Assembly (NCBI RefSeq): GCF_003545695.1
Contig: NZ_QUZZ01000015.1
Location: 62,001 to 126,000, forward strand
Origin: Taibaiella helva
Lineage (GTDB): Bacteria; Bacteroidota; Bacteroidia; Chitinophagales; Chitinophagaceae
DNA length: 64,000 bases
Direction: 5' to 3'
The notes beneath the pieces are model-generated. The model searched no databases. It was not told where the DNA came from and saw nothing but the letters and a program-made list of their open reading frames with translations. The translations under genes and the position numbers were made by a program. Below, one piece after another: positions 1-59,555 of the stretch. Positions within the stretch are counted from its first letter, which is position 1, and each line of letters opens with the position of its first letter.

Positions 1-1
1 A

Positions 2-820: not shown

Positions 821-829
821 AAGCATTTT

Positions 830-38780: not shown

Positions 38781-41186
38781 TCAGCGGAAATATTTATACC
38801 GGTACATCACAGAGAACAGGAAGTAGCGTCCCAGCCGGTTATAGCTACGGTCTTCGATGTAGTTGTCGCTGACGGTGCGCTGGATATTGGGCTCATTGTT
38901 GAGCAGGTCGGCGATCTGTGCTTTCACAAACAGGCCCGGCACCTTTTTAAATTCCTTGCTGATCCCTGCGCCGATCAGGGCAAAGTTGCGGTCCAGGCCA
39001 TCGGAATAGCCCTGGTTGGCAGAATAGGTTACGCTGCCGCTCAGGGTAATATAAGCCGGCAGGTGCAATTTGAAATCAGCAGACAGCAGCTGCGTATTGA
39101 TGTTGTTGCTGCCATACATCAGCGGGCTTTCGGTCTTGCTCATGCTGTAGGTATAGGAGACCTGGCCCTCCAGCAGCGCAGTGGTCAGGTTGGCGCGGAA
39201 CGTCGGCCGCAGGTTGTATTCCCGTATAGTCTGCTCCACCGCGTTTGTGATATTCCCGTTACTGGTCATGCCGGCCTGCATGGCGAACATGATCCGCAAC
39301 GGCTTGATGATGTTTTTCGAATAGTTGATGGAAGCCGTCATATTGCTGCCATCCACGTTGACCGGCTGTATGTATTGCTTGTTGCCGGATATCGTTATTT
39401 TATTGACGATGCGGTTAGCGGTACGGTTATAGGTGAGGGTAGCCCAGAGCGAGGATCCTGTTTTTACATTAAGCCGGTTATAGTTGAGCGCAAAATTGTT
39501 CTGCACCTCCGGTTTCAGGTCAGGGTTACCGGTAAATATGTTCAGGCTGTCCTGGTAATTGGGAGCAGTTCTCAGCATGCTGATATCCGGAGGCTGCATA
39601 TTACCCGAATAGCTGAACTCCAGCTCGTCGCTGCTGGCCAGCCGGTAGCGCAGGTTCAGCACAGGCATATAGCTGACCTTGCTGTTTCGGATAACGCTTG
39701 CCTCATATATATTCCGGTTGTTGCCCGAAAAGAACTGGCTTCTGAAGCCGATACCGGCAGTAAGATTTTTGGCGGACAGCTGGTATTTGATGCCAGCCGT
39801 ATGTTGCTGGTAGCTGAATTGGGTAATATAGCTCTGCAGGCTGTCGAAAAGATGCTCGCCGCCTGCCTCCGGTGTAAAGACATCTTTCTGGTCCCTGCTG
39901 CTGAAAAGCTGCATGGAGTAGTCGACCGCCAGCCGGTGTTTGTCGCCCAGCGGCTCTGTATATTGCAGGGAAAGCATGGTGTTCCGTTCCCGGGTTTGCT
40001 GGTCTGTGGTGCTCTTGTTGGGATCGCCACTCTGCACGCCGTCGCTGAAGCTGGTATTGTTGTTGTATCCGTCTATATTGCCGCTCTGGTAACGATTGTC
40101 CAGGCTGATGAATAAGGTACGGCCGGGCGTGGCAAACCGCTTCATATAGGAAAGCAGCAGCGATACCGCCGGTGTATTCCGGGTAGTGCGCGCATCGCCC
40201 AGGCGGGAAAAGTGTCCGCCTGCGCCGCTGCCGTAATAGTTGGAATCGAGGTTGTGCTGCAAGCCGTCCATGCGGGTGTAATTGGTGTTGAGCGCCATGG
40301 TCAGCGTGCTGGAAGGATCGGCCTGGTATTCCAGTCTGGTATTCAGCTTATACAGATCGTTGGTATTGCGCTGGTTGCCGGTCCGGTTCTGGTAATAAAT
40401 ATCGTCCGGCAGGAAGGTCCTGCGTCCTGCTTGCTCTTCGAGGGTCTTCTGCCTGCTCAGGGCCTCGACGTTGCCGGATATCTTCAGCTTAGATCCCGGG
40501 TTATTGTACACATAGTTGGCGTTAATGTCTTTCTGGACCACGAGGCCCTGGTTCGGCGGACTTTGCCCGCCGGCGTCATTATCGTCGTTGAGCCCTGTAT
40601 TGTTGGTATTGGTAATATAGCCGGTAGAAGTGATGCGGAGCCTGCCGCTCATATAGTTCAGGAAGTTATTTCCGGCATAGCGGCGCCGGGTACCGGCGCC
40701 GGCCGATGCCCGCCCGTAAACACCGCCGTCCAGGTCCTCTTTCATCCGGATATTGATGATTTTCTCCCCGATGCCGTCCTTAATCCCTGACAGGCGCGAC
40801 TGTTCCGAATACAGGTTGGTCACTTCTATTTTATCAATGATCTCGGCCGGCAGGTTCTGGGTGATCGAACGGATGTCGTTAACCTCCATCTCCGTGCCGT
40901 TGACAAAAATGCGTGTCACATCTCTTCCCTGCACAGCGATCCTGCCGGAAGAGCTGACGTCTATCCCCGGCATTTTTTTCAGGATATCTTCTGTTACGGC
41001 TGAAGCATCGTTGTAGAAGGAATCCGCCACATAGATCGTCGTATCGCCCTTACGGCTTATCGCCTTCCGGCTTACGATGACGAATTCTTTCAGTTCAATA
41101 GTATCTTTCAGTGAATACGATTCCTGCGCTGATAAATCCAAAGACAGCAGCAGGAAGATAAGGCCAATTATGAAGCGCTGAAGCAT
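38781..41186 (-). CDS. Outer-membrane beta-barrel protein, TonB-receptor-like
   Basis: The 801-aa protein starts with a signal peptide ending LSAQE. A plug-like domain (about 30-150) includes VTEDILKKMPGIDVSSSGRI, QGRDVTRIFVNG and EIIDKIEVTNLYSEQ. A large barrel of OMP type 3 follows, with strands such as LEFSYSGNMQPPD and ending in MYRYKYF. These proteins are relatives of TonB receptors and often import unknown ligands. The gene is alone, upstream of (and in the same direction as) the array region. Confidence 0.87.
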   Translation of the reverse strand: MLQRFIIGLIFLLLSLDLSAQESYSLKDTIELKEFVIVSRKAISRKGDTTIYVADSFYNDASAVTEDILKKMPGIDVSSSGRIAVQGRDVTRIFVNGTEMEVNDIRSITQNLPAEIIDKIEVTNLYSEQSRLSGIKDGIGEKIINIRMKEDLDGGVYGRASAGAGTRRRYAGNNFLNYMSGRLRITSTGYITNTNNTGLNDDNDAGGQSPPNQGLVVQKDINANYVYNNPGSKLKISGNVEALSRQKTLEEQAGRRTFLPDDIYYQNRTGNQRNTNDLYKLNTRLEYQADPSSTLTMALNTNYTRMDGLQHNLDSNYYGSGAGGHFSRLGDARTTRNTPAVSLLLSYMKRFATPGRTLFISLDNRYQSGNIDGYNNNTSFSDGVQSGDPNKSTTDQQTRERNTMLSLQYTEPLGDKHRLAVDYSMQLFSSRDQKDVFTPEAGGEHLFDSLQSYITQFSYQQHTAGIKYQLSAKNLTAGIGFRSQFFSGNNRNIYEASVIRNSKVSYMPVLNLRYRLASSDELEFSYSGNMQPPDISMLRTAPNYQDSLNIFTGNPDLKPEVQNNFALNYNRLNVKTGSSLWATLTYNRTANRIVNKITISGNKQYIQPVNVDGSNMTASINYSKNIIKPLRIMFAMQAGMTSNGNITNAVEQTIREYNLRPTFRANLTTALLEGQVSYTYSMSKTESPLMYGSNNINTQLLSADFKLHLPAYITLSGSVTYSANQGYSDGLDRNFALIGAGISKEFKKVPGLFVKAQIADLLNNEPNIQRTVSDNYIEDRSYNRLGRYFLFSVMYRYKYFR

Positions 41187-41286
41187 ACCAGTTCGTTAAG
41201 ATAACAAAGCTTTCAATGAAAAGAAGTAAGCGAAGCGGCCGGAGCCGCTTCGCCGGATATGCCCGCCTCCGGGGCATAAGCATTCA

Positions 41287-41727
41287 TCAGTTAAAATCGA
41301 CAAAGGTATTGCCGCCAATAGCCGTCCAGGTGCCGGTTACGGTTACACCGCCGCAGGCGCTGGGAAAAGTAACCGAAGTGGGGGAGCTGCAGGCAGATCC
41401 CAGGCCGCCACCGAATACACCGCCGGACAAGGCATAGAACTTAACGGCATCCCAGCCCCATACAGTAGTTCCTCCTGTAGTTACTGCTGTAATACCACCT
41501 TGCCAGCCTGGGGTAGTATTCAGGGAGGCCACGTTGTTGTAGGCCAGGGAGCCGAAAGCAGGCACAGTGACTTCGAAGCTTTGAAGCGTGCATTCGCCCG
41601 TATGGCCGGCATCATGTCCGCGGATGCTCATGTTGATCGGGCAGGCGGTATTGTTGGTGATAAATAAAGCCGCTTTGGCAGAAACGGCGGCCATGCAGAG
41701 CATGCCCAGTGCGAGAACCTTTTTCAT
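41287..41727 (-). CDS. Array protein 14 (last copy in transcription order)
   Basis: This 146-aa member of the tandem family has signal peptide MKKVLALGMLCMAAVSAKA and mature start ALFITNNTAC. The four cysteines sit in NNTAC, GECTL, GSAC and SACGG. It keeps GGTTVWGWD and GNTFVDFN at the end, but the second motif is GHDAGH rather than AHDxNH. It is the member nearest the outer-membrane barrel gene, 101 nt from it. Function unknown. Confidence 0.8.
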   Translation of the reverse strand: MKKVLALGMLCMAAVSAKAALFITNNTACPINMSIRGHDAGHTGECTLQSFEVTVPAFGSLAYNNVASLNTTPGWQGGITAVTTGGTTVWGWDAVKFYALSGGVFGGGLGSACSSPTSVTFPSACGGVTVTGTWTAIGGNTFVDFN

Positions 41728-41817
41728 AGATTTTGATGTTTAAACTGGATGATTGATTAAGAATGAAAAATAAAAATGAGCAAGGGAGTATAATATTCCG
41801 GGGTGACTATGCAGCAA

Positions 41818-42261
41818 TCAGTTGATATCGATAACGACATTAGCCCCCGGAAGCCAGGTAACAACGACATTACCGGAGCCCTGGCATACATTGGGGACGG
41901 TTACTGTATTCGTTGTGGTGCAGGTAAGGTCTCCGACGGTGCCGCCGACGGTGCTCCCCTGGAAATTGAAAAGGAACGAACGCCAGCCCCAGCTGCCGGC
42001 TCCGCCCGCGGTCGTGGCCATATAGCCTCCGCCCCAGCCGGGAGAAACATTCAGAGAGCTTACATTGTTATATGCAAAGGAAGAGATGGGCGGGATGATC
42101 ATCGGATTGGTATGCATCACGCAGCCCGGCACGTTGATGTCGTAGGCTACGATATAGCCCTCATAAGTACAGCTCGTATTGTTGTTGATGAACAAGGCGG
42201 CCTGTGCTCCTGAGGACAACAAGCCCATTAAGGCAATCATAAGGAAACGTTTCATGATCAT
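41818..42261 (-). CDS. Array protein 13
   Basis: This 147-aa copy has signal peptide ending SSGAQA (ATG at 42261 with a second in-frame ATG two codons in). The mature start is ALFINNNTSC and the four Cys lie in NNTSC, PGC, LTC and NVC. It is a divergent copy: AHD-NH is replaced by AYDINVPG and the tryptophan motif is WGWRSF rather than WGWD. The C-terminus is VVIDIN as in other members. Confidence 0.78.
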   Translation of the reverse strand: MIMKRFLMIALMGLLSSGAQAALFINNNTSCTYEGYIVAYDINVPGCVMHTNPMIIPPISSFAYNNVSSLNVSPGWGGGYMATTAGGAGSWGWRSFLFNFQGSTVGGTVGDLTCTTTNTVTVPNVCQGSGNVVVTWLPGANVVIDIN

Positions 42262-42301
42262 GAATTTTAAGGTGGATTGGAAAATGCCCTCAGGGCTTTG
42301 C

Positions 42302-42754
42302 TTAATTGATATCGATGACCGAATTTCCGCCAGGGTTGGTCCAGATAACTGTTACATTATTTCCATTGCAGCCGCCGGGCATCGTTGTGGACATATTGCT
42401 GACACAGCTTCCGGTATTGCCGATTACGCCGCTGATGCTGGATACGGTGAAATAGAATTTGCTGGCGTCCCAGCCCCAGGCGGTGGTACCGCCGGTGAGT
42501 ACGGCCGGACCATTGATCCAGGAGGGCGTTCCTGTGTTCAGCGTGGTGACATTGTTAAAGGCGATCGAGTTGTTTGCCGGTACCACAAACCAGTTGGAAT
42601 GAAGCATACAGGTGGCGTGGTTGAAATCGTGCGCATAGAGCTCGATGGTCAGGTCGCAATCGGTGTTATTGGTGATGAACAGGGCGGCCCTGGCCTGGGA
42701 GCTGGCTGTAACAAGCAGTGCTCCGGCGAGCAGTTTGGGGAATAGTTTTTTCAT
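42302..42754 (-). CDS. Array protein 12
   Basis: The 150-aa copy has a longer signal region (LLAGALLVTASSQARA) and mature start ALFITNNTDC. It keeps AHDFNH and AFNNVTTLNT, carries TAWGWDASKF, and has the four Cys in NTDC, ATC, GSC and GGC. It ends SVIDIN. The 63-nt distance to array protein 11 (ATG-proximal) and 40 nt to copy 13 show the usual tight spacing. Confidence 0.8.
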   Translation of the reverse strand: MKKLFPKLLAGALLVTASSQARAALFITNNTDCDLTIELYAHDFNHATCMLHSNWFVVPANNSIAFNNVTTLNTGTPSWINGPAVLTGGTTAWGWDASKFYFTVSSISGVIGNTGSCVSNMSTTMPGGCNGNNVTVIWTNPGGNSVIDIN

Positions 42755-42777
42755 AAAATGTTTGGTTTGATTACAGG

Positions 42778-43215
42778 TTAAGGATTAAATTCTACTAAAG
42801 TGTTTGTGCCGATCGCCGTCCAGGTAACCGTTACGGGATTGCCCGAACAGGCATTGGCATAAGTAAAAAAATAACCGGTAGCGCAGCCTGTAGGTGGTCC
42901 GACCTGGCTGCTCAGCATGGGAAAGGTAAAGGCAACTGCATCCCAGCCCCAGACGGCTGTGCCGCCTGCAGTGGAAGCAAGGGCGCTTCCCATCCAGCCG
43001 GGGCTGACGTTCAGGCTGGTCACATCCTGGAAAACGGCAGCCACGCCCGGGCCCAGCATGAATGTGTTGGACTGCAGTCCGCAGGTCAGGTGTGCAATGT
43101 CATGTGCTTTGATAATAACCGGAATAGTACAGGTCGTATTGTTCGACAGCAGCAGCGCTGCTTTTGCGCCGACCGTGCCCAGTGAACACAGTAACAGGAT
43201 TAAGATCTTTTTCAT
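42778..43215 (-). CDS. Array protein 11
   Basis: I use the ATG at 43215 (145 aa), because the open sequence upstream is not a signal peptide. The signal is ILILLLCSLGTVGAKA and the mature start ALLLSNNTTC. It has AHDIAHLTCGLQSN and GGTAVWGWDAVAF. The four Cys are in NTTC, LTC, TGC and NAC. The C-terminus is NTLVEFNP, slightly different from the DIN ending of most copies. Confidence 0.8.
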   Translation of the reverse strand: MKKILILLLCSLGTVGAKAALLLSNNTTCTIPVIIKAHDIAHLTCGLQSNTFMLGPGVAAVFQDVTSLNVSPGWMGSALASTAGGTAVWGWDAVAFTFPMLSSQVGPPTGCATGYFFTYANACSGNPVTVTWTAIGTNTLVEFNP

Positions 43216-43256
43216 TATTCTTCTTTTAAGCGTGAAAAGACAGGCAGTATAAGGCA

Positions 43257-43694
43257 TCAATAGAAGAAGTCAGCGACGGTATTGGTGCCCACTACATAGA
43301 AATAGCCGCCTACATCGGCACCGCAGGGATCTTCCGCTGCATTGCTTACGCCCTGGGCGCAGGTATTGGGATGTCCTATGATCATGCTGCCGACGCCGTT
43401 ATACTCCACCGCGTCCCAGCCCCATACCGCAGTACCGCCGGCTATAGTGGCCGTAGTGCCGCCCTGCCAGCCTGGTGCAGCGTTCAATGTGGTGACATCC
43501 GCATACATGACAAAATCGCTGGCGGCTATGGTGATCACATTGGAGCGCAGGGCGCAGGAGCTTGTATTGTTGGCATCATGCGCAAGCACCCGTACCTGGA
43601 TCGTACAGTTGCTGTTGTTGGTGATGATCAGGGCGGCATGGGCTTGCATGCCCAATAAGGCCATCACAACAAAAAAGAGTAGTTTTTTCATCAT
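43257..43694 (-). CDS. Array protein 10
   Basis: The double ATG at 43694/43691 starts a 145-aa copy with signal FFVVMALLGMQAHA and mature start ALIITNNSNC. It has AHDANN, a changed AFNN segment (YADVTTLNAAPGW) and GGTAVWGWDAVEY. The four Cys lie in NSNC, SSC, NTC and DPC. The C-terminus (YFYVVGTNTVADFFY) is the most diverged of the regular copies. Confidence 0.78.
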   Translation of the reverse strand: MMKKLLFFVVMALLGMQAHAALIITNNSNCTIQVRVLAHDANNTSSCALRSNVITIAASDFVMYADVTTLNAAPGWQGGTTATIAGGTAVWGWDAVEYNGVGSMIIGHPNTCAQGVSNAAEDPCGADVGGYFYVVGTNTVADFFY

Positions 43695-43784
43695 TCGCTT
43701 TTTTAGGTTTTTGATAAATGGTATACGCTTAACGCTCCCGACAGAGAACATGAGAGGGCCTGGAGTATCCCATGTGGTGGCTTT

Positions 43785-44207
43785 TTAATTATATAGCTCC
43801 ACCAGGATATTGCGCCCTGCAATGGTCCATTTCACATTCAGGTCGGCGCCGCAGGCATCTTTGACGACCCCGGTAGTTACTGTTGCACAGCCTGTTCCTA
43901 CCTTCAATGTGCTGGTACCATTGTGAAAGCCCAGGGCATCCCATACGGCTGCCTTAGGATCACCAGCCACGGTCATTCCCTTTTCCCAGCCCGGGTTTTC
44001 GGCTACCTGGCCGGCATTATTGAATGCCATCGTTCCCATAGAAGGGATGGTCATTATTTTGGATTCCAGCTCACAGGCTTTACCTTTTTCACTATGGGCG
44101 TAGACACGCACCTGCACGGTACATTTGCTGGTATTGTTGATAAACAAGGCTGCCCTTGCAGCAGGGGCGAGGAGGAAGAGCAATGCTGCGGTGAATAATT
44201 TTCTCAT
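43785..44207 (-). CDS. Array protein 9 (divergent copy)
   Basis: The 140-aa copy (ATG at 44207) has signal TAALLFLLAPAARA and start ALFINNTSKC. It has lost two family motifs: AHD-NH is AHSEKGKA and GGT-VWGWD is PKAAVWDALGF. The four Cys are still present (SKC, KAC, TGC, DAC) and it ends NILVELYN. Retention of Cys while motifs drift suggests the disulphides matter most to the fold. Confidence 0.75.
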   Translation of the reverse strand: MRKLFTAALLFLLAPAARAALFINNTSKCTVQVRVYAHSEKGKACELESKIMTIPSMGTMAFNNAGQVAENPGWEKGMTVAGDPKAAVWDALGFHNGTSTLKVGTGCATVTTGVVKDACGADLNVKWTIAGRNILVELYN

Positions 44208-44319
44208 AGTTCTATCTTTGATGTTACAGAAAAAAACCTGACAAGGATTGACCGGCACAGGAGCGATATACGGACAGCCTTATATCGCTCCCAATGATCC
44301 GGATCCTATACGAAAGCCC

Positions 44320-44760
44320 TTAGTTGGCTTCCAGCAGAATATTGCTGCCGAAAGGCTGCCAGGTTACGGTAGCCGTACCGCCGCAGGGGTTGGGTACCGA
44401 CTCCAGTTGGTTAAGCCCGCAGCTGGTCACGCCTACAGTAGCGCCGCCGCCACCACCAGAAAAGAAGAACTTACCGGCATTCCAGCCCCAGGTAGTCGGT
44501 CCGCCGGCGATAGAAGCCATGACGCCGCCACCCCAGAGAGGAGCTGCTGTATTCAGCGTGGCCACCGTATTGTAAGACTCCGAGCTGTTGGGGCCCAGCG
44601 TAAGCACGTTGCTTTGCAGCCCCCAGCATCCGGGATGGGCCGGGTCGAAGGCGAATATGGTAATGTTTATCGTACAGTTGGTATTGTTATTGATGAGCAG
44701 GGCGGCCTTTGCCTGGGCGCCGAGCACAAGCAGCGAAGCAGCAAGAAACAGTTTTTTCAT
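44320..44760 (-). CDS. Array protein 8 (subtype A)
   Basis: The 146-aa copy has signal FLAASLLVLGAQAKA, mature start ALLINNNTNC and the subtype A motif FAFDPAHPGCWGLQSN in place of AHD-NH. A Gly run (SGGGGGATVG) follows TTWGWN. Its near relative is array protein 2 at 47261-47701, some 2.9 kb away. The four Cys are in NTNC, PGC, TSC and NPC. Confidence 0.82.
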   Translation of the reverse strand: MKKLFLAASLLVLGAQAKAALLINNNTNCTINITIFAFDPAHPGCWGLQSNVLTLGPNSSESYNTVATLNTAAPLWGGGVMASIAGGPTTWGWNAGKFFFSGGGGGATVGVTSCGLNQLESVPNPCGGTATVTWQPFGSNILLEAN

Positions 44761-44807
44761 AAGCAGGTTTTTAAAAAGTTTGGGTTAAAGAATAGATGAA
44801 CCCGGAT

Positions 44808-45251
44808 TTAGTTGATGTCGATAAAAGTATTGCTGCCCATTACCGTCCAGTCGGCAGTTACGCTATTGGTGCCGCAGGCATTCGGCGTAGTAACCGAAGC
44901 CGTAGGGAAACAGCTGCCGGGATTACCTATTTCTGCCCACATCGTTCCGCCGAGGGAGACAACAGTGGCCGCATCCCAGCCCCATACGGCAGTGCCGCCG
45001 GAAGTGGTAGCCGTCTGGCCATTTATCCAGAAAGGATTCGTGGTATTAATGGTCGCCACATTATTGAAGGCGGCAGATGTGCCGGGGTCTACCTGCAGGC
45101 GGCCGGATTCCAGTCCGCAGATACCATGATTCAGGTCGTGAGCGCGTATAACCACAACCATGATGCAGCTCGTGTTGTTGGTGATGAACAGGGCTGCCTT
45201 GGCGCCCACGGCCGACAGCGATAGCAGTAAAGCGATAAAGAGTTTTCTCAT
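44808..45251 (-). CDS. Array protein 7 (subtype B)
   Basis: The 147-aa copy (ATG at 45251) has signal LFIALLLSLSAVGAKA. Cys residues are at 29, 45, 114 and 126. It contains AHDLNHGICGLESG, GGTAVWGWDA and TTPNACGTNSVTADWT, and ends NTFIDIN. Subtype B copies (this one, 45723-46163 and 46676-47116) share the RKLFI/RTFLI start and the TTPNACGT segment. Confidence 0.83.
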   Translation of the reverse strand: MRKLFIALLLSLSAVGAKAALFITNNTSCIMVVVIRAHDLNHGICGLESGRLQVDPGTSAAFNNVATINTTNPFWINGQTATTSGGTAVWGWDAATVVSLGGTMWAEIGNPGSCFPTASVTTPNACGTNSVTADWTVMGSNTFIDIN

Positions 45252-45270
45252 AAAAATGGTTTTAAGTGAA

Positions 45271-45711
45271 TTAAGGTGTGAATTCAACGATCGCAGTAGT
45301 ACTATTGATAGAAGTCCATGTCGCGGTCACGCTGGCTGAAGGTACACAGCCGTTATCCGGTACCGTCAGCACGTCGGTGCTGAAACAGGCGGTGGTATTG
45401 CCGATCAGGCCGCCGAGGGAGCCGTTGAATGCGGCGCCATCCCATCCCCATACCGTAGTCCCTCCGGTGGTTACAGCTGTTTGCCCCAGCCAGCCCGGAG
45501 TCGTATTGAGGTTTGTCACATTATTGAATGCAGCGGAGGAATTGGGCAGTACGGTCACCCGGCCTGAGATCAGGCCACAGGTGCCGTGGTTCAGATCATG
45601 CGCATAAACCTGGACGTATACCGTGCAATCCGTGTTGTTGTTAATGAACAGGGCCGCCTCAGCCCCTGCACCGGGCACAAGAAGCGAAGCTGCGAGGATC
45701 ATTTTTTTCAT
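45271..45711 (-). CDS. Array protein 6 (subtype C)
   Basis: The 146-aa copy (ATG at 45711) has signal ILAASLLVPGAGAEA and mature start ALFINNNTDC. It has AHDLNHGTCGLISG, GGTTVWGWDGAAF and ASVTATWTSINSTTAIVEF. The last segment marks subtype C, shared with 46197-46631. Its ATG lies 12 nt downstream of the stop of array protein 5 (45723). The four Cys are in NTDC, GTC, TAC and NGC. Confidence 0.82.
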   Translation of the reverse strand: MKKMILAASLLVPGAGAEAALFINNNTDCTVYVQVYAHDLNHGTCGLISGRVTVLPNSSAAFNNVTNLNTTPGWLGQTAVTTGGTTVWGWDGAAFNGSLGGLIGNTTACFSTDVLTVPDNGCVPSASVTATWTSINSTTAIVEFTP

Positions 45712-45722
45712 AGACAAACTTT

Positions 45723-46163
45723 TTAAATGATATCGAGGAAAGCATTACCACCTACCACGTGCCAGGCTGTCGTTACGGAGCTGGTACCGCAGGCATTTGG
45801 TGTCGCGAGCACGGGTATTGGGAAACAGCTTCCGGTTCTCCCTATTTGTGCCCACAGTGTGCTGCCGTTGGTGACGAAAGCGCCGTCCCAGCCCCATACC
45901 GCAGTGCCACCGGCTGTAGTAGCCATCTGGCCATTTTGCCAGCCGGGTAATGTGGTGTTGAGCGTAGCCACATTATTGAAGGCGGCAGATTCTCCGGCGG
46001 CCAGCTGCAGGCTACCGGATTCCAGGCCACAGACGCTATGGTTCTGATCGTGGGCATATATGGTGACGGTGACGCTACAATTCGTATTGTTGGTGATGAA
46101 CAAGGCCGCTTTAGCGCCTATGGCCGGCAATGATAGCAGTAAGGCGATGAGGAAGGTTCTCAT
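45723..46163 (-). CDS. Array protein 5 (subtype B)
   Basis: The 146-aa copy has signal FLIALLLSLPAIGAKA and mature start ALFITNNTNC. It has AHDQNHSVCGLESG, GGTAVWGWDGAF and TPNACGTSSVTTAW. It differs from the other subtype B copies mainly near the C-terminus (GGNAFLDII). The four Cys are in NTNC, SVC, GSC and NAC. Confidence 0.82.
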   Translation of the reverse strand: MRTFLIALLLSLPAIGAKAALFITNNTNCSVTVTIYAHDQNHSVCGLESGSLQLAAGESAAFNNVATLNTTLPGWQNGQMATTAGGTAVWGWDGAFVTNGSTLWAQIGRTGSCFPIPVLATPNACGTSSVTTAWHVVGGNAFLDII

Positions 46164-46196
46164 AAGATGTATTTCATGAGTGATAGCGTAAATGCA

Positions 46197-46631
46197 TTAA
46201 TTAAAGTCCACTATTGCAGCAGTGCTGCTGATGGAAGTCCAGGTAGCCGTTACGTTGGCTACAGGTATGCAGCCATTGGGTACGGTCAGGTTGTCGGTGG
46301 TGAAGCAGGCGGTAAGGTTGCCTATAGGGCCGCCGTTGGCGCCGTTGAAGGTGATGCCGTCCCAGCCCCATACTGCGGCTCCGCCGGTAGTTACGGCCGT
46401 TTGTCCCATCCAGCCCGGGTTCGTGTTAAGGCTCGCTACATTATTGAACGGAAGTGCCGTCATAGGTGGCACAACGATGCGACCGGAGAGCAGGCCGCAG
46501 ATACCATGATTCAGGTCGTGCGCATAGACCTGGACAATTACCGTACAATTGGTATTGTTATTAAGGAAGAGCGCAGCCTTCGCCTGGGCGCCGAGCGCAA
46601 GCAGCGAAGCCGCAAGGATCAGTTTTTTCAT
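46197..46631 (-). CDS. Array protein 4 (subtype C)
   Basis: The ATG at 46631 gives 144 aa; the open frame upstream of it lies in the next gene. The signal is ILAASLLALGAQAKA and mature start ALFLNNNTNC. It has AHDLNHGICGLLSG, GGAAVWGWDG and ANVTATWTSISSTAAIVDFN, close to array protein 6. The four Cys are in NTNC, GIC, TAC and NGC. Confidence 0.83.
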   Translation of the reverse strand: MKKLILAASLLALGAQAKAALFLNNNTNCTVIVQVYAHDLNHGICGLLSGRIVVPPMTALPFNNVASLNTNPGWMGQTAVTTGGAAVWGWDGITFNGANGGPIGNLTACFTTDNLTVPNGCIPVANVTATWTSISSTAAIVDFN

Positions 46632-46675
46632 AAGCTTTTTTTTAGGATGGATTTGGTTAAAGAAGGGGGTGATTT

Positions 46676-47116
46676 TTAATTGATATCGATGAAGGTATTG
46701 CCGCCGAAAATGGTCCAGTCGGCAGTTACGCTGTTGGTGCCGCAGGCATTCGGCGTAGTAACCGATGCCGTAGGGAAACAGCTGCCGGGATTGCCTATTT
46801 GCGCCCACATGGTTCCGCCGTTGGTGACGATGGCTGCATCCCAGCCCCATATCGCAGTGCCGCCGGCGGTGGTCGCCGTCTGGCCGTTTTGCCAGAAGGG
46901 CAGCGTGGTGTTGATGGTTGCCACATTATTAAAGGCAGTGGAGGCGCCGGGGTCCAGCTGCAGACGGCCCGATTCCAGTCCGCAAGTACCATGGTTCTGG
47001 TCATGGGCGTAGATCAGCACGACCATAATACAGTTCGTGTTATTCGTAATGAATAAGGCTGCTTTGGCACTGGCGGCCGATAACGATAGCAGCAAGACGA
47101 TGAATAGTTTTCTCAT
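46676..47116 (-). CDS. Array protein 3 (subtype B)
   Basis: The ATG at 47116 gives 146 aa with signal LFIVLLLSLSAASAKA and start ALFITNNTNC. It has AHDQNHGTCGLESG, GGTAIWGWDA and TTPNACGTNSVTADWT. By eye about four residues in five match array protein 7, which lies 1.9 kb away, so these two are recent duplicates. The four Cys are in NTNC, GTC, GSC and NAC. Confidence 0.83.
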   Translation of the reverse strand: MRKLFIVLLLSLSAASAKAALFITNNTNCIMVVLIYAHDQNHGTCGLESGRLQLDPGASTAFNNVATINTTLPFWQNGQTATTAGGTAIWGWDAAIVTNGGTMWAQIGNPGSCFPTASVTTPNACGTNSVTADWTIFGGNTFIDIN

Positions 47117-47260
47117 AGCAATGGTTTTAGATTGGCTAACGGATAAACAGGCAGCCAGCTTCCGCTGCGGCCGTATCTCCACATCCTGCTTTGACCGTAG
47201 CGGGAGCGATATACAGTTGCCTGCAAATCGTTCCCGCCGGCCGGCCATACCAGGAAGCAG

Positions 47261-47701
47261 TTAGTTGGCTTCGACAAGAATGTTGTTGGTGCCCGGTAAA
47301 GGTGTCCAGGTTAAGGTTACGCTGGTACCGCAGGCAGTGCTCGTAACGGAAGCCGGTACCCCGCAGCTGGCTACGCCTACGCTGCCGCCACCACCACCGG
47401 TAAAGAAAGTTTTGGCAGCATTCCAGCCCCAGGTAGTCGGCCCGCCGGAAATGGACGCCATGGCGCCGCCATACCAGAACGGCGCTGTTGTGTTCAGGGT
47501 GGCCACCGTAGTATAAGAAACGGAGGAGCTGGGTCCCAGGGTGATCAGGTTGCTTTGCAGCCCCCAGCATCCGGGATGGGCCGGGTCGAAGGCGAACATG
47601 GTAATGTTTAAAGGACAGCCGGTGTTGTTATTGATAAACAGGGCCGCTTTGGCCTGGGCGCCGAGCGCGAAGAGTGAAGCGGCAAGGAGCAGTTTTTTCA
47701 T
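47261..47701 (-). CDS. Array protein 2 (subtype A)
   Basis: The ATG at 47701 gives 146 aa with signal LLAASLFALGAQAKA and start ALFINNNTGC. It has the subtype A sequence FAFDPAHPGCWGLQSN and a Gly run (TGGGGGSVG) after TTWGWN. It pairs with array protein 8. The 144-nt gap to copy 3 is one of the widest in the array. The four Cys are in NTGC, PGC, ASC and TAC. Confidence 0.83.
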   Translation of the reverse strand: MKKLLLAASLFALGAQAKAALFINNNTGCPLNITMFAFDPAHPGCWGLQSNLITLGPSSSVSYTTVATLNTTAPFWYGGAMASISGGPTTWGWNAAKTFFTGGGGGSVGVASCGVPASVTSTACGTSVTLTWTPLPGTNNILVEAN

Positions 47702-47744
47702 AGTTTGGTTTTTATGTTTTAATAAAGGAAAACGAGCGTATGGT

Positions 47745-48158
47745 TTAATAAAAGTCAATAAAGGTATTCCCCCCGATGGTGTACCAGTCGGCCTGTACAG
47801 TCGTAGTCCCGCAACCGTTGGGCACCGTTATGGATGTGCTGCCGCCACAGTTGGGGCCCAGGTTGCCGCCAATGCTGACACCGCCGAAAAGCGCCGAATC
47901 CCAGCCGCTGCCGGTAGTGACCGCAGGACCGTTCTGCCAGCCGGGGCTTGTATTCAGGGAGGTCACATTGTTGAATGCCTGGGACCCAAAGGCAGCGACA
48001 AGGAAACGGTTGGATTGCATCAGGCAGGTACCATGGTTCTGATCGTGGGCCTGGAGTACGATGTACACATCGCAAGCCGTGTTATTGGTGATGAACAACG
48101 CAGCCCTGGAGCTTAGTACCAGCAAGGAGCAGCAGGCGATCATGAATAGTTTTTTCAT
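47745..48158 (-). CDS. Array protein 1 (first copy in transcription order)
   Basis: The 137-aa copy has signal FMIACCSLLVLSSRA and mature start ALFITNNTAC. It has AHDQNHGTCLMQSN but a shortened tryptophan motif (TTGSGWDSALF, missing GGT-V). The four Cys are in NTAC, GTC, PNC and NGC and the end is NTFIDFY. As the most upstream gene it is the likely head of a long transcript; no consensus promoter is visible just upstream. Confidence 0.82.
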   Translation of the reverse strand: MKKLFMIACCSLLVLSSRAALFITNNTACDVYIVLQAHDQNHGTCLMQSNRFLVAAFGSQAFNNVTSLNTSPGWQNGPAVTTGSGWDSALFGGVSIGGNLGPNCGGSTSITVPNGCGTTTVQADWYTIGGNTFIDFY

Positions 48159-49193
48159 AAGGACAAATAGAATTTTAAGGTTAAAAAATAAAACAGGCTT
48201 GAAGATGAAAGGGCCCCGCTAAACTGTGGGGTAAACGAATGCATTTGTCCGTGCGGTGTAAGCGCGAAGGAGCATTGCCCGGGACAGTCCGGGATACCTG
48301 CATGTCCTCTCTGCAAAGCATAGGCATAGCGAAAGCGCTTGTAGCAAAACAAGATCACCGGGGGCCATTAGCCATGCGCTGCCATAGCGATATGCCGATT
48401 GCGCCGGAAACTGCATGCTGCCGGAGCTGTCTGTGGCGCTGCTGCTGTAAAACAGGCGGGAACAGCGCCAACGCATCCGGGATGGGTATTGTTGATATTA
48501 AATGCTTGCGGTCAGGCCGGTTGCCGTATCCGTATAAGATACTTTGGCCTGTATGCCAGTCGGGACATGCCAGTCACGAAGTTCGCGGGGTGCACTGCGA
48601 AGAAGCAAAGGCAATTGTCCGGGAGCTGCTGCGCCCGGTTATTTTGGCAGAAGCTTGTGTGCTCCTGGTAATATAAATATAAATGTGCGGGGAGGCACCT
48701 GGAAGGATAATGGCGCGTTCATAAATTAGATGTTAGTGTTTGGTTGAAGGATATAATTGATATAACCAGTATTGAAAATAAGGGTGAAAACCTTAAATAA
48801 CCAAAGGTTTCTTTACTAACGGTATTTTTTTTCTTATAAACGGTTTATAATACCTGAAATAACAAATGGAAATATTGAAGCAACGGACATAAGCTATGCT
48901 GCATAAAAGGATACCTTATCCCAATGAGCAACCGGAACAGCTGTAAAAATTAAGATTATCATGATAAATCCGGGGATAATGGCATGTGTACATGGAGCAG
49001 ATGTTCGGTTCTGCTTGTCGTCAAAGCCGCGGGCATATTAATGCATGAACAGGCATCGCAGGTTGTGCAACCGCATACAGATGCGCACCACCGATTTAAG
49101 AGATAATAACATTGACTCCAGCAGGATATGCGGATGGGCAGAATGCCCGCAAAGCCTGCTGCTTTTGTATCTTTGAAGATGGATCGTTAAGCT
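48159..49193. other. Gene-poor region upstream of the tandem array
   Basis: About 1 kb without a convincing gene. The left part (48230-48670) is GC-rich with open frames on both strands that look like no protein I know. The minus strand there reads NINNTHPGC, vaguely like the array motif, so a decayed copy is possible. The right part (48670-49100) is AT-rich. The promoter of the array may lie in this region but was not recognised. TATCTTTG for the next gene lies at 49168-49175. Confidence 0.5.
49168..49175 (+). promoter_or_regulatory. Candidate -7 box of the WYL regulator gene
   Basis: TATCTTTG matches TAnnTTTG and ends 18 nt before the ATG at 49194. No -33 box was found. Confidence 0.4.
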
Positions 49194-49928
49194 ATGAGCA
49201 ACCATACCGATATGAAGAGGCTTACCCGCCTGAGCGCCATCCTGCTGCAGCTGCAGACCCGACGGATCGTCAACGCAACCGACCTGGCCGAAAAGTTTGC
49301 CGTGAGCGTGCGGACCATTTACCGCGATATAAGAGTGCTGGACCAGATCGGCGTTCCGATAGCCAGCATTGAAGGTAAAGGCTACTCCCTGGCAGAAGGA
49401 TACAAAATCCCCCCGGTCATGTTTACAGAACAGGAGGCCAATGCCCTGATCACGGCCGGACAGCTGGTCAATCTGAACAAAGACAGTTCCCTGATCCGCT
49501 CCTATAACGACGCGGTGGATAAAGTGAAAGCAGTGCTGAACTATACAACAAAAGATAAAATAGCGCTGCTTCCCGGGCGTGTTGCGGTAAGCCTGGCAAG
49601 CCTGGAGCAGCCCACCAGCAGCTCCTTATCGGCCATCCAGGATGCGCTTACCAGCTTCATCGTGCTGCGCATGACTTACCTGGCAGCGGGTAAAAAGGAA
49701 AGTACGGAAAGGCTGATTGAGCCCTTCGCTTTTTATTACAGCAGCCGGCAGCAATGGACGCTGATCGCCTTCTGCCGGCTGAGAAATGACTTCAGGATGT
49801 TCCGGCTGGACAGGATCGTAACGGTTAATACTACCCATCTTAAGTTTTCACCACACCAGCTTAGTCTCCAGGAATATCTGCAGGAAAAAGAAATAAATTT
49901 CATAAGCCCTGACAAACAGTTGTCATAG
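49194..49928 (+). CDS. YafY-type HTH/WYL transcriptional regulator
   Basis: The 244-aa protein has an HTH_11 domain at residues 7-60 (LTRLSAILLQLQTRRIVNAT, with DIRVLDQIGVPIASIEGKGY as the recognition and wing part). A WYL domain follows (RLIEPFAFYYSSRQQWTLIA and FRMFRLDRI). WYL domains bind small ligands or nucleic acid fragments. It is followed after 39 nt by a VOC gene on the same strand, which may be its target. Confidence 0.9.
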   Translation: MSNHTDMKRLTRLSAILLQLQTRRIVNATDLAEKFAVSVRTIYRDIRVLDQIGVPIASIEGKGYSLAEGYKIPPVMFTEQEANALITAGQLVNLNKDSSLIRSYNDAVDKVKAVLNYTTKDKIALLPGRVAVSLASLEQPTSSSLSAIQDALTSFIVLRMTYLAAGKKESTERLIEPFAFYYSSRQQWTLIAFCRLRNDFRMFRLDRIVTVNTTHLKFSPHQLSLQEYLQEKEINFISPDKQLS

Positions 49929-52340: not shown

Positions 52341-53588
52341 TTATTCCAATGGTCCCTGCCGGGCGGCTGCAACGGCGGCCCGGTCGCCGGGATAGGCTTT
52401 TAGCAAAAGCCGTTCGATTTCTACGAGACGCTTATGGGTTGCAGCAGAAGCTTCCGTTGTATGCCGCAGTTCGGCTTCCAGTTGCTCTACACGGCTTTTC
52501 AGCGCTTCGTTTTCCGCACTCAGCTTCCTGCTGCGGATTTCCAGCGCCTGTATGGCCGCCATATTGACGCCGTCGATATCAACCGTATTAATGGTAGTGT
52601 CGTTCCCGATACCGTCAAGCTGAAACGCCGCATAGAAATCCTGCGCCATGGGGCCTATATGACGTTGTGTAGCAGGCTGGCTTTTATAGTTCCAGCTCGT
52701 CAGGGGTAACGCGGCAACTTTAGTTAGTATTTCTTCGCGGTCAAGCGTTTGAAAGTTCTCTTTTTTGCGCCGGTCGCTCAATGAAGACCATGAACCTCCT
52801 CCGGGGGAGAGCGCGATGCCGCTGGTGAGGTTCAAATTAGTAAAAAGTCGGTAGCCACCAACGAAGCGCATGGACATCTGGTTGTTCGCTGAACTGTATA
52901 CACTGTCGCTGGTGAATCCTGCGCTGCCATCGCCCAGCACAAAGGAGCCGTTATGATTGGACCGCGCTGTTCTGCCGAGCGCGAAGCTGTACCAGTTCGA
53001 AGCGCGGTTGGAGACCCCGATCGCTACTGAAAATATTCCGCTGGAGGTTGAGGGCCCTATACTTACGGAACCGAAGCCGTAGGCAACAGCGTTCTGACCC
53101 AGGGCCATCGCCTGATCTCCTGCGGCAATGGCGCCGCTTCCTATGGCCACTGCGCCGGTATCCGTTGCCTGTCCGTTGAGCGCTACGCTGGCTAAGGCCG
53201 ATGCTATGCTATAGCTACCCATCGCTACAGACTCGTTCCCGGAGGCAGTCGTATTGTTCCCGGCAGCAAATGAGCTGGTACCGCTGGCCCGGGTGTTTGT
53301 GCCGGCAGCAAAAGAGTAATTGCCTATATTGGAAGCATCCCAGAAGCTGCCGCCGCCGGCATCCAGGTAACCAGCCCGAAAGGCTGCTTTCGGCGCATAC
53401 CACATCATGCGGCGCCCGTCGCCGCTTATGGGCGTTGCTGTAGTCGTAACTGCAGCGCCGGCAGCGGAGAAAAGTACGCTGCTATCGGTAACGTGCAGTC
53501 CTGCGAGCGGGTTCGTGGTCCCTATGCCTACCTGTGCCTGTGCCAATACCGGGACTAATCCCAGCATGGAAATAATGATGACTTTCAT
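52341..53588 (-). CDS. Surface protein with YadA-like head repeats and S74 chaperone domain
   Basis: The 415-aa protein has a signal peptide ending LAQAQ and then repeats of the YadA-head type (SFAAGTNTRASGTSSFAAGN, AVAIGSGAIAAGDQAMALG). An S74 (endosialidase-type) intramolecular chaperone starts at LSDRRKKENF, where the conserved Ser is the self-cleavage residue, and continues to GPMAQDFYAAF. A short coiled coil (NEALKSRVEQLEAEL) follows. Such proteins fold as trimers and release the C-terminal chaperone by autocleavage. Related domains occur in phage tail fibres, but no phage genes surround it. Confidence 0.88.
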   Translation of the reverse strand: MKVIIISMLGLVPVLAQAQVGIGTTNPLAGLHVTDSSVLFSAAGAAVTTTATPISGDGRRMMWYAPKAAFRAGYLDAGGGSFWDASNIGNYSFAAGTNTRASGTSSFAAGNNTTASGNESVAMGSYSIASALASVALNGQATDTGAVAIGSGAIAAGDQAMALGQNAVAYGFGSVSIGPSTSSGIFSVAIGVSNRASNWYSFALGRTARSNHNGSFVLGDGSAGFTSDSVYSSANNQMSMRFVGGYRLFTNLNLTSGIALSPGGGSWSSLSDRRKKENFQTLDREEILTKVAALPLTSWNYKSQPATQRHIGPMAQDFYAAFQLDGIGNDTTINTVDIDGVNMAAIQALEIRSRKLSAENEALKSRVEQLEAELRHTTEASAATHKRLVEIERLLLKAYPGDRAAVAAARQGPLE

Positions 53589-57976: not shown

Positions 57977-58036
57977 CGCCAGTTGATGATGACTAGTCCT
58001 AAAAATCGATACAGGATTAAAGAAAAACCAAGAAAA

Positions 58037-58064
58037 GGGCTGTCTGGAAAAATACAGGCAGCCC
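58037..58064. terminator. Hairpin ahead of the lone response regulator
   Basis: GGGCTGTCTG and CAGGCAGCCC form a 10-bp stem (one G-U) with an 8-nt loop, with TTTT available on the minus strand side and CTCTTTG on the plus side. Confidence 0.55.
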
Positions 58065-58209
58065 CTCTTTGTTTGTTTTCATGGTTTATCTCTATATCGC
58101 TATAAACCATTTCGCTTTGTGGTCACCTTGTAGGGTGAAAATAGCTGTAAGCACAAGAGGGATTGATTCTGTCGGCAAAAAAAGCTGGTATTTTTATAAA
58201 AAAGTGAAA

Positions 58210-58848
58210 ATGGTAAGCGTTAGCGTCATTGATGACAATAAAATGATTCGGGACAGCATAACCCAATTGCTCGCCTTACACCGTGACGAGTTTGAAACCG
58301 CTGGTGTATATGAATCTGCGGTTGCTTTCCTGAATAGCTTGATCATCCGGAATCCGGGTCAGATACATATTCTGTTGCTTGATATTGGTCTGCCGCGCTT
58401 GTCTGGACTTGACGCTATTCCCCTTATACTCGAGAAGGTGCCAGACATCAATATCGTTATGCTCACCACTTATGAAGAGGAAGACGTAATCTTGAAAGCA
58501 CTGTGCTCGGGGGCTTACGCCTATATTTCCAAACGATCAGGTCTGGATGATATTATGGCAGCATTGCGTATTGTAGCAACGGGTGGGTCTTACATGTCGC
58601 CGTCCATCGCCCGCGAGATTGTCAATCACCTGATGGGTGGACATGTCAGTAAAGCCTCCATACTTAGTGAAAGACAAAGAGAGATACTTCAAAAGCTGGT
58701 GGATGGGAAGAGCTATCAGACTATAGCTTCTGAACTCTTTCTTTCAGTAGAAACGACTCTGTATAGTATAAAAAAAATATACAAAGTTTTGCACGTTAAT
58801 AATAAAACGGAAACTATTGCGCAATATCTACGTGGCTTTATCCATTAA
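58210..58848 (+). CDS. NarL/LuxR-type response regulator without a kinase
   Basis: The ATG at 58210 gives 212 aa. The receiver domain has VSVIDDNKMIRDSI (acidic pocket), ILLLDIGLPRLSGLDAIP (phospho-acceptor), and Lys in YISKRSGLDDI. The C-terminal HTH is LSERQREILQKLVDGKSYQT with FLSVETTLYSIKKIYKVL. No histidine kinase is adjacent, which is unusual for this family in Bacteroidota, where such regulators are paired with TPR kinases. The DNA is richer in AT than average. Confidence 0.9.
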   Translation: MVSVSVIDDNKMIRDSITQLLALHRDEFETAGVYESAVAFLNSLIIRNPGQIHILLLDIGLPRLSGLDAIPLILEKVPDINIVMLTTYEEEDVILKALCSGAYAYISKRSGLDDIMAALRIVATGGSYMSPSIAREIVNHLMGGHVSKASILSERQREILQKLVDGKSYQTIASELFLSVETTLYSIKKIYKVLHVNNKTETIAQYLRGFIH

Positions 58849-59555
58849 AATGTAGGCTGCATTACGCTGATTCATATGGCAAGTATTGCTATTTTTGCGT
58901 AAAACTGTATTTATACATTGCTTTTAAAGCTTGATTTCCTGCTAGCAACATTGCTGTTTCCGGCTTATCCTCTTTTGGCACAAGGATCAGGATTCGTATG
59001 TGCGCCACCGACCTGTTTGTTTAGCAACTTTCCTGTCAGAGCTAGCAATATTTTATCGAATGTTCTCTTAAAGGTAATCAGGCTTACGGGAATCGTAGTT
59101 CCTGACATCACTGGATCGGCCCATTGGCATTCTGAGAAATAGCCGGATCGGGCAAAGCATTGGTGTTATTTGGCTTGAGCTGCCACAGTTGCTTCAGTAA
59201 TCTGCACTGCCCCCTTACACTTAAAACTACGGTAAGTACCCCTAAATCCAGATAGTCGTAAATTAGAGCTTTCTAATTTCTTTGTGTCTATAAATCCTGG
59301 AGCCGAAAACAAAAATTAATCAAACCTGTCAGATTAAGTATTAGCGATTACACATTAAATACCTACGCAGCCATAGCACCTTCCCATATCGAACGTTCCA
59401 AAAAAATTGGAGGCGACTAAAAAATAGCACTCTACTTTTTAGTCGCCTCCAAATAAACCAGGCCAGAAAAGGGTTTCAACCAATTTTAAGCACCATCTTT
59501 GGCCACATTGTCTAAAAGAAAGGAATCGTATTAAGTTGGTTCCGGAAACATCCGG
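58849..59555. other. AT-rich intergenic region with a strong hairpin
   Basis: About 700 nt without a clear gene. At 58918-59142 there is a TTG-started frame (LLKLDFLLATLLFPAYPLLAQ) that resembles the signal peptide of a lost secreted protein. A perfect 17-bp hairpin lies at 59407-59452. No other structure was recognised. Confidence 0.5.
59407..59452. terminator. Strong bidirectional hairpin
   Basis: TTGGAGGCGACTAAAAA at 59407-59423 and its exact complement at 59436-59452 form a 17-bp perfect stem with a 12-nt loop; A-runs and T-runs are built into the stem. It lies 104 nt past the stop of the T9SS adhesin fragment on the minus strand and probably terminates it. Confidence 0.75.

What the first reader, a model, noticed from the sequence alone, without database searches (positions are those of the whole stretch)
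41287..48158. Fourteen tandem genes for secreted four-cysteine proteins of an unrecognised family
Seen directly: 14 consecutive minus-strand genes, each about 137-150 aa, share a signal peptide, a mature start near ALFITNNT, four cysteines in every mature chain and, in most, AHD-NH and GGT-VWGWD motifs. I know no named family that fits. Tandem families of secreted small proteins that diverge while keeping Cys are known for adhesins, effectors and immunity-type ligands. A function in recognition, in attack on other cells, or as surface coat is inference. This is the best candidate for an undescribed system in the window.
Basis: partly seen in the sequence, partly recalled or inferred. Interest (0 to 1): 0.9.

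Follow-up and report, generated by a model that had tools for sequence, protein, structure and literature searches.

The report
Secreted disulfide-protein gene array in Taibaiella
A Bacteroidota bacterium keeps fourteen side-by-side genes for small, probably exported proteins that share one predicted shape and two likely internal cross-links but match no named family, and a conserved stretch of DNA that looks like a control switch sits in front of them, so they may be turned on together for a task that is still unknown.

Summary
In detail: 14 consecutive minus-strand genes at 41287-48158 (137-150 aa), each with a signal-peptide-like start and exactly four mature cysteines. The genome belongs to Taibaiella (Chitinophagaceae). 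No convincing match was found in Pfam, NCBIfam, PHROGs, PADLOC or PDB sequences. The family is wider than the array: 16 copies in this genome, 15 in T. koreensis, 38 in T. chishuiensis, none in a fourth congener. T. koreensis has a 14-gene array too, with 11 reciprocal-best pairs under purifying selection (mean dN/dS 0.13; neighbouring gene 0.11): old, differentiated paralogues rather than an arms race. AlphaFold gives a confident beta-sandwich; its nearest solved folds are membrane- or ligand-binding sandwiches (aegerolysins, NttC, Vps13 VAB), too weak for membership. Coupled cysteine loss points to disulfides C10-C106 and C27-C94. A LytTR-type direct repeat (48844-48815) precedes the array, is conserved in T. 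koreensis, and recurs before one small lipoprotein-like gene in both species; a hairpin closes the array. Best reading: a LytTR-switched, exported repertoire of ligand-binding beta-sandwiches. Binding and regulation are inferred, not shown.

The parts
48815..48844 (-). LytTR-type operator candidate: 9-bp direct repeats with a 12-bp spacer, upstream of the array
   Evidence: The only consensus match in the 64-kb window (expected 0.02, 60 Markov simulations); one match in the 16-kb T. koreensis locus, at the homologous place; leader alignment
48682..48844 (-). conserved non-coding leader block (probable promoter region)
   Evidence: 73% identity over 164 columns to the T. koreensis leader, E 1e-20
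48639..48722 (-). short ORF (27 aa) at a conserved ATG downstream of the operator; leader peptide, gene remnant or chance, uncertain
   Evidence: ATG also present in T. koreensis but the ORF lengths differ (27 and 42 aa)
47745..48158 (-). array gene g14 (137 aa), first in transcription order; pairs with T. koreensis k01
47261..47701 (-). array gene g13 (146 aa), type A
46676..47116 (-). array gene g12 (146 aa), type B; AlphaFold model 1 (pLDDT 88.7)
46197..46631 (-). array gene g11 (144 aa), type C
45723..46163 (-). array gene g10 (146 aa), type B
45271..45711 (-). array gene g09 (146 aa), type C
44808..45251 (-). array gene g08 (147 aa), type B
44320..44760 (-). array gene g07 (146 aa), type A
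43785..44207 (-). array gene g06 (140 aa), most divergent; 11 K+R in the mature chain
43257..43691 (-). array gene g05 (144 aa)
42778..43215 (-). array gene g04 (145 aa)
42302..42754 (-). array gene g03 (150 aa)
41818..42255 (-). array gene g02 (145 aa)
41287..41727 (-). array gene g01 (146 aa), last in transcription order; AlphaFold model 2 of the mature chain (pLDDT 91.4, pTM 0.85)
41229..41254 (-). intrinsic terminator-like hairpin (11 pairs, 8 G-C) after the last array gene
   Evidence: Strongest of 14 terminator-like sites in 8.4 kb, where shuffles give 9.3 (sd 3.0); a similar hairpin stands between array and barrel gene in T. koreensis (sequence printed)
38781..41186 (-). outer-membrane beta-barrel gene (PF14905), also next to the array in T. 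koreensis; lies beyond the hairpin, functional link uncertain
   Evidence: no ORF at three T. chishuiensis loci of the family matched it at E 1e-8

Best explanation
The locus is a co-regulated array of paralogous, Sec-exported proteins of about 118-128 mature residues. Each folds outside the cytoplasm into a beta-sandwich stapled by two disulfides (C10-C106 and C27-C94, numbering of mature g01). A LytTR-family response regulator probably binds the direct repeat at 48844-48815 and turns on a long transcript through all 14 genes, ending at the hairpin at 41254-41229. The mature proteins act in the periplasm, at the cell surface or in the medium as a set of binding modules of differing specificity, most likely for a lipid, glycan or other surface ligand; most of the paralogues were already separate before this species and T. 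koreensis split. Shown: array, orthology, purifying selection, conserved leader motif. Predicted: fold, signal peptides. Inferred: disulfide pairing, LytTR control, co-transcription, ligand binding.
For: Array and four cysteines. Confident all-beta models of two members. High fold neighbours in both second looks are membrane- or ligand-binding sandwiches: best aegerolysin Z 7.9 and 7.1, NttC 6.7 and 6.7, Vps13 VAB 6.7 and 8.3. Cysteine presence is coupled: C10 and C106 agree in 99 of 102 members, C27 and C94 in 99 of 102, the four other pairings in 78-82 of 102. 10 of 11 reciprocal-best pairs are sisters in the tree and all 11 have dN/dS well under 1. Operator: one match in 64 kb against 0.02 expected, and again at the homologous place in T. 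koreensis; a tighter pattern with up to 3 mismatches occurs exactly twice in each of these two genomes, at the array and before an orthologous 79-aa lipoprotein-like gene. One T. chishuiensis cluster directly follows a histidine kinase and LytTR regulator pair.
Against: No ligand, secretion or expression data. Fold scores sit at the level the tool calls middling (Z 7-8 is usual for models without a clear match); Foldseek found nothing at E 0.001 or better. The loose LytTR consensus is not enriched genome-wide: 3 matches against 3 for the reversed control here, 4 against 5 in T. koreensis, 2 against 2 in T. chishuiensis, and the tight pattern was written from the sites themselves. The introduction of PMC4847170 says LytTR sites share no common consensus sequence (passage). 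The operator lies about 656 bp before the first array gene, against 83 bp at the T. koreensis lipoprotein-like gene. Cysteines change only 2-4 times each on the 69-row tree, too few for a significant test. The T. chishuiensis cluster beside the LytTR pair has only a 17-of-18 site, on the other strand.
Confidence: 0.4

Rival explanations
1. Surface-coat or matrix subunits: the proteins are made in bulk and pack on the cell surface or in the biofilm matrix, the copies serving dosage and packing variants.
For: Mature chains are low in charge (13 of 14 have K+R of 2 or fewer) and 44-57% S/T/N/G/A. Pilin and pilus-adhesin sandwiches appear among the fold neighbours at Z 4.4-5.2.
Against: Paralogues are old and distinct (down to 30% identity), more than dosage needs; no anchor or C-terminal sorting domain was found in the Pfam scan of the 14.
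Confidence: 0.22
2. Antagonistic lipid-binding proteins: aegerolysin-like modules released against other bacteria, protists or fungi.
For: Aegerolysin-type chains are 8 of the first 12 rows of the first second look (that Cry34Ab1 and IP-1A belong there is recalled) and stay high in the second. LytTR-type repeats control bacteriocin genes elsewhere (PMC6193735, passages). Looser copies of the site in T. chishuiensis precede SpvB-like and IgGFc-binding-like genes.
Against: No aegerolysin match over the cut-off and no MACPF match in the genome; no profile similarity to the one Bacteroidota aegerolysin tested (probability 0.4%); no non-family gene of size within the array that could serve as immunity gene; purifying selection.
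Confidence: 0.15
3. Ligand-scavenging proteins that deliver cargo to the neighbouring outer-membrane barrel (38781-41186), hemophore-style.
For: Array plus barrel is one block in two species while the next genes on either side differ.
Against: A hairpin terminator separates them in both species; at three T. chishuiensis loci of the family no ORF matched the barrel at E 1e-8. Against this objection: a different 779-aa ORF of unscanned function lies 2.6 kb after one of those clusters.
Confidence: 0.1
4. Neutral gene amplification without a maintained function.
For: Copy number differs strongly between congeners: 16, 15, 38 and 0.
Against: dN/dS 0.083-0.280 in 11 orthologue pairs and invariant cysteines; no internal stop in any of the 14.
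Confidence: 0.03

Closest known systems
Aegerolysins (Pfam PF06355; PlyA, OlyA, RahU; Cry34Ab1 and IP-1A by recall)
   Same: Similar size and predicted beta-sandwich; Z 5.7-7.9 over 87-99 residues in the two second looks
   Different: No PF06355 match over cut-off in the genome and no profile similarity in one test with a single sequence; these carry signal peptides and four cysteines; no MACPF match in the genome
NttC, Legionella type II secretion substrate (PDB 6sjt, Pfam PF24268)
   Same: Small secreted beta-sandwich with a disulfide; Z 6.7 in both second looks; the paper reports an internal cavity and a fold match to DdCAD-1 (PMC7325957, passages)
   Different: Only a weak Pfam hint in one distant relative, E 0.099; the paper reports one disulfide and no detectable homologues outside Legionella
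Thaumatin-like proteins (TLXI, Act d 2)
   Same: Beta-sandwich; Z 4.5-6.9 in the two second looks
   Different: Only four cysteines; no thaumatin match among the Pfam hits of the 14; canonical members have far more cysteines (recalled)
DUF6759 (Pfam PF20545)
   Same: Shared N-terminal hairpin pattern (I-x-N-x-S/T-x-C); weak hits in g05, g03 and one distant relative (E 0.0099, 0.11, 0.077); profile match of 21 columns, probability 55%; copies also cluster in other Bacteroidota
   Different: Similarity covers only the first two strands; no DUF6759 match at E 1e-5 in this genome
LytTR-regulated operons (AgrA, HdrR/BrsR type)
   Same: 9-bp direct repeats 12 bp apart, close to repeats tabulated for LytTR regulatory systems (PMC6193735, passages)
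   Different: Regulator not identified; the genes here are not bacteriocins of a known family

Membership tests
Aegerolysin (PF06355) | match to the PF06355 profile | tested here: not met
   No match over cut-off in the whole genome; the one weak match, E 0.54, lies elsewhere; not among the Pfam hits of the 14 proteins at E 0.1
Aegerolysin (PF06355) | aegerolysin beta-sandwich fold | tested here: inconclusive
   VIA-align Z 7.9, rmsd 3.7, 99 aligned; Z 7.1, rmsd 3.5, 94 aligned with the second model; Foldseek nothing at E 0.001 or better
Aegerolysin (PF06355) | MACPF partner protein in the same organism (bicomponent pore formers only) | tested here: not met
   No PF01823 match at E 10 or better in the genome
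Aegerolysin (PF06355) | binding to membrane sphingolipids | not testable with these tools
   needs purified protein
Thaumatin-like proteins | many conserved disulfides (recalled: 10 or 16 cysteines) | tested here: not met
   Exactly four cysteines in 14 of 14
Thaumatin-like proteins | thaumatin fold | tested here: inconclusive
   Z 6.9, rmsd 3.2, 81 aligned; Z 5.2, rmsd 3.5, 89 aligned
DUF6759 (PF20545) | match over the family cut-off | tested here: not met
   Best E 0.0099, 16.4 bits against a cut-off of 27
DUF6759 (PF20545) | profile-profile similarity over the domain | tested here: inconclusive
   21 columns, probability 55%; shuffled and reversed controls 0.02-0.35%
LytTR-controlled operon | paired 9-11-nt repeats with an 11-13-nt spacer upstream | tested here: met
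   spacing from passages of PMC4847170 and PMC6193735
LytTR-controlled operon | binding and regulation by a LytTR response regulator | not testable with these tools
   two LytTR regulator genes lie in the window but no link to the site was shown

The most novel reading that the evidence does not exclude
An undescribed Chitinophagaceae superfamily of secreted, two-disulfide beta-sandwich recognition proteins, deployed as a LytTR-switched repertoire in which each paralogue binds a different surface lipid or glycan of neighbouring microbes: a prokaryotic panel of fixed-specificity recognition proteins, expanded separately in different species.
Probability: 0.12. Interest if true: 0.85.

Novelty: new variant of a known kind. 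Interest (0 to 1): 0.57.

Why it matters
A tractable family would be added to the unknown part of Bacteroidota secretomes: up to 38 copies in one genome, a confident predicted fold, a disulfide hypothesis that mass spectrometry can test, and a candidate operator that links the copies to a regulator class known for secreted products. If the copies bind different ligands, the array is a ready-made panel for studying how bacteria recognise surfaces.

Tried and rejected
Homology by sequence: Pfam, NCBIfam, PHROGs, PADLOC and PDB gave no convincing match. Results I set aside as noise: an NCBIfam fimbrial chaperone model (StdC) at E 0.004 in one of 14 (its cut-off was not shown), DUF4126 at E 0.015 in one, a PDB chain at E 3.4.

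Aegerolysin membership: rejected on sequence, kept as a fold resemblance. Only one Bacteroidota aegerolysin, a single sequence, served in the profile test, so that test is weak; in 395 genomes of the phylum only 2 had a PF06355 match at E 0.001 and 1 was over the cut-off. Aegerolysins are not among the 50 rows shown by Foldseek for either model, though they are in both second looks. The viral structure library gave nothing at E 0.001.

Mobile origin: no plasmid or phage record matched g01, the only member tried there; 9 viral stretches matched a pattern but none encoded a relative.

Leader: no Rfam match at E 0.1. The sigma-70 scan found 3 sites where shuffles give 8.8. A Bacteroidota TTTG/TAnnTTTG promoter pattern (recalled) was not found in 41000-49300.

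Rapid diversification: not supported by whole-gene dN/dS. Five sites differ among paralogues but are kept in at least 90% of orthologue pairs (17, 30, 77, 89, 95), four of them in strands; without coordinates I could not test whether they share a face.

Literature: searches on Taibaiella genomes, Chitinophagaceae tandem paralogues, aegerolysin with Bacteroidetes, DUF6759 and OMP_b-brl_3 listed no paper that I could recognise as describing this family; two searches returned none, for the others I read the listings only (the top 15, 10 and 2 rows). The library is open-licence PMC. Passages of PMC9505663 and PMC4227749 were also read and not used.

Limits: large genome searches scored at most 9 or 10 candidates per genome, so distribution counts are lower bounds. 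The 38 rows of A2 were picked by hand for diversity from those listed; A2 therefore leaves out some window members. The profile test used 73 family rows after duplicates and rows under 110 residues were dropped. The tree's 38 T. chishuiensis rows come from fetched stretches and are not the same set as the 38 matches, some of which were not fetched; one of those 38 matches has an internal stop and several are weak (E to 5.8e-4). dN/dS is a Nei-Gojobori calculation of my own, with dS 0.73-1.37 in the 11 pairs, near saturation.


Full report
OBSERVATION. The 14 genes exist as described: minus strand, 41287-48158, 137-150 aa, gaps of 11-144 bp. Each starts MK or MR, has a hydrophobic stretch and a plausible signal-peptidase site before AL[FIL] (read by eye), and each mature chain has exactly four cysteines (14 of 14). 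Identities run from 30% to 84%. The motif claims need trimming: AHDxNH is exact in 7 of 14 and GGTxVWGWD in 6 of 14.

ORGANISM. The window is G000:C5:62001-126000 of a 4.8-Mb genome. Its same-genus relative G001 has a contig of the same length and matching positions as Taibaiella koreensis NZ_QVNU01000009.1, and G174 likewise matches Taibaiella chishuiensis. The genus lies in Chitinophagaceae, Bacteroidota. The species of the window itself was not determined.

FAMILY. Scans of all 14 found nothing convincing: Pfam best E 0.0099 and under its cut-off, NCBIfam best E 0.004 in one member, PHROGs best 0.085, PADLOC none at 0.1. A profile of the 14 hits 30 of 394 genomes of the taxonomic family, this one included, at E 0.001 or better, in 15 of 101 genera. 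A wider profile hits 5 of 395 genomes spread over the phylum: this genome, one more of the same family, and three outside it that are marginal, E 2.5e-5 to 7.8e-4. Both counts are lower bounds because at most 9 or 10 candidates per genome were scored. With the wide profile this genome has 16 copies at E 0.001 or better, 14 in the array and two alone; T. koreensis has 15, T. chishuiensis 38, and a fourth congener none. In the loci viewed, relatives are also short proteins with signal-peptide-like starts, alone or in small clusters, in differing surroundings.

EVOLUTION. T. koreensis carries a 14-gene array with the same order at its ends and turnover of three gene types (A, B, C) in the middle: here A-B-C-B-C-B-A, there A-A-C-B-C-B-A (the naming is mine). 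Eleven of 14 genes form reciprocal best pairs. In the tree of 69 members 10 of these 11 are sisters; g12 and k05 are not, k05 pairing weakly with g08. The 14 T. chishuiensis copies closest to the array group among themselves (support 93/73, not at the starred level), which suggests separate expansion. The 11 pairs have mean dN/dS 0.128 (range 0.083-0.280); the adjacent outer-membrane gene has 0.111. The array genes are thus old, different and constrained.

STRUCTURE. AlphaFold2 gives an all-beta fold for g12 (pLDDT 88.7, pTM 0.81) and for mature g01 with a broader alignment (pLDDT 91.4, pTM 0.85). Foldseek finds no PDB match at E 0.001 or better with either model, and its 50 listed rows hold no aegerolysin. 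The second look ranks an aegerolysin first for model 1 (Z 7.9, rmsd 3.7, 99 aligned) and Vps13 VAB first for model 2 (Z 8.3, rmsd 4.4, 95 aligned), then an aegerolysin (Z 7.1, rmsd 3.5, 94 aligned) and NttC (Z 6.7). The tool warns that Z near 7-8 is usual for models with no clear match. I read this as a common type of ligand- or membrane-binding sandwich, not as family membership.

DISULFIDES. Among 102 members, C10 and C106 are both present in 92, both absent in 7 and discordant in 3; C27 and C94 are both present in 80, both absent in 19 and discordant in 3. The four other pairings are discordant in 20-24 (a cysteine within two columns was accepted). This points to C10-C106 and C27-C94. On the 69-row tree each cysteine changes only 2-4 times, so independent events are too few for a significant test.

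COMPOSITION. In 13 of 14 mature chains K plus R is at most 2; g06 is the exception with 11. S, T, N, G and A make up 44-57%.

REGULATION. The 1-kb leader holds a block 73% identical to T. koreensis over 164 columns. Inside it is a direct repeat, 9 bp twice with a 12-bp spacer, at 48844-48815. It is the only match to the LytTR consensus (form recalled) in the window; simulated sequence gives 0.02. T. koreensis has its only match in 16 kb at the same place, and none in two further stretches of 19 kb around it. Genome-wide the loose consensus is not enriched: 3 against 3 for the reversed control here, 4 against 5 in T. koreensis, 2 against 2 in T. chishuiensis. A tighter pattern, written from these sites and allowing three mismatches, occurs twice here (control 1), twice in T. 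koreensis (control 0) and three times in T. chishuiensis (control 0). In the first two species the second site lies before orthologous 79-aa lipoprotein-like genes, and the four stretches align on from the operator towards the start codon. In T. chishuiensis the sites have two mismatches each; two lie before an SpvB-like and an IgGFc-binding-like gene, and one lies between a LytTR regulator gene and an oppositely oriented pair with an acyl-carrier-like gene. One T. chishuiensis cluster of the family lies directly downstream of a histidine kinase and LytTR regulator pair, although its own upstream region has no full site. From passages of two papers: LytTR sites are two 9-11-nt repeats 11-13 nt apart without a common consensus (PMC4847170), and tabulated repeats such as ACCGCTTGT-12-ACCGCTTAT resemble this one (PMC6193735). 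A strong hairpin with a T-rich tail follows the array (terminator-like sites in the region are 14 against 9.3 in shuffles), and T. koreensis has a similar hairpin there.

NEIGHBOURS. The outer-membrane barrel gene at 38781-41186 (PF14905) keeps its place in T. koreensis (83% identity) while the next genes on either side differ; homologues of the window's first 3 kb lie about 8-12 kb before the T. koreensis array, so the region has been rearranged rather than replaced outright. The hairpin, and the lack of a barrel match at three T. chishuiensis loci, argue against a tight functional bond.

VERDICT. The likeliest reading is a jointly switched, exported repertoire of two-disulfide beta-sandwich binding proteins (confidence 0.4). 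Coat subunits and antagonistic lipid binders remain open.

Noticed in passing
L108 1179-1418 (-), G000:C21 near 80900; L107 1614-1853 (+) in T. koreensis: A 79-aa lipoprotein-like gene with several cysteines shares the array's operator type in both species and has no Pfam match at E 0.1.
   Followed up: partly
L113, L116, L119 (T. chishuiensis): Looser copies of the operator lie before an SpvB-like gene, an IgGFc-binding-like gene and beside a LytTR regulator gene.
   Followed up: partly
window 43785-44207: g06 and its orthologue k09 differ in residue make-up from the alignment as a whole; g06 lacks the WGW motif, though orthology is clear.
   Followed up: no
L065-L084: DUF6759 proteins occur in several copies, some adjacent, in other Bacteroidota genomes: 4 matches in each of 6 of the 7 positive genomes, of 296 searched.
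   Followed up: partly
window 48639-48722: A conserved ATG after the operator opens a short ORF whose length differs between species; it may be a leader peptide, what is left of a lost gene, or chance.
   Followed up: partly
window 52341-53588: Protein with YadA-head repeats and an endosialidase-chaperone domain (PF05658, PF13884), on the same strand just downstream of a histidine kinase and LytTR regulator pair.
   Followed up: no
window 1-2000 and 58001-60000: G+C falls to 0.39 and 0.41 where most of the window lies between 0.46 and 0.58; possible recent insertions.
   Followed up: no
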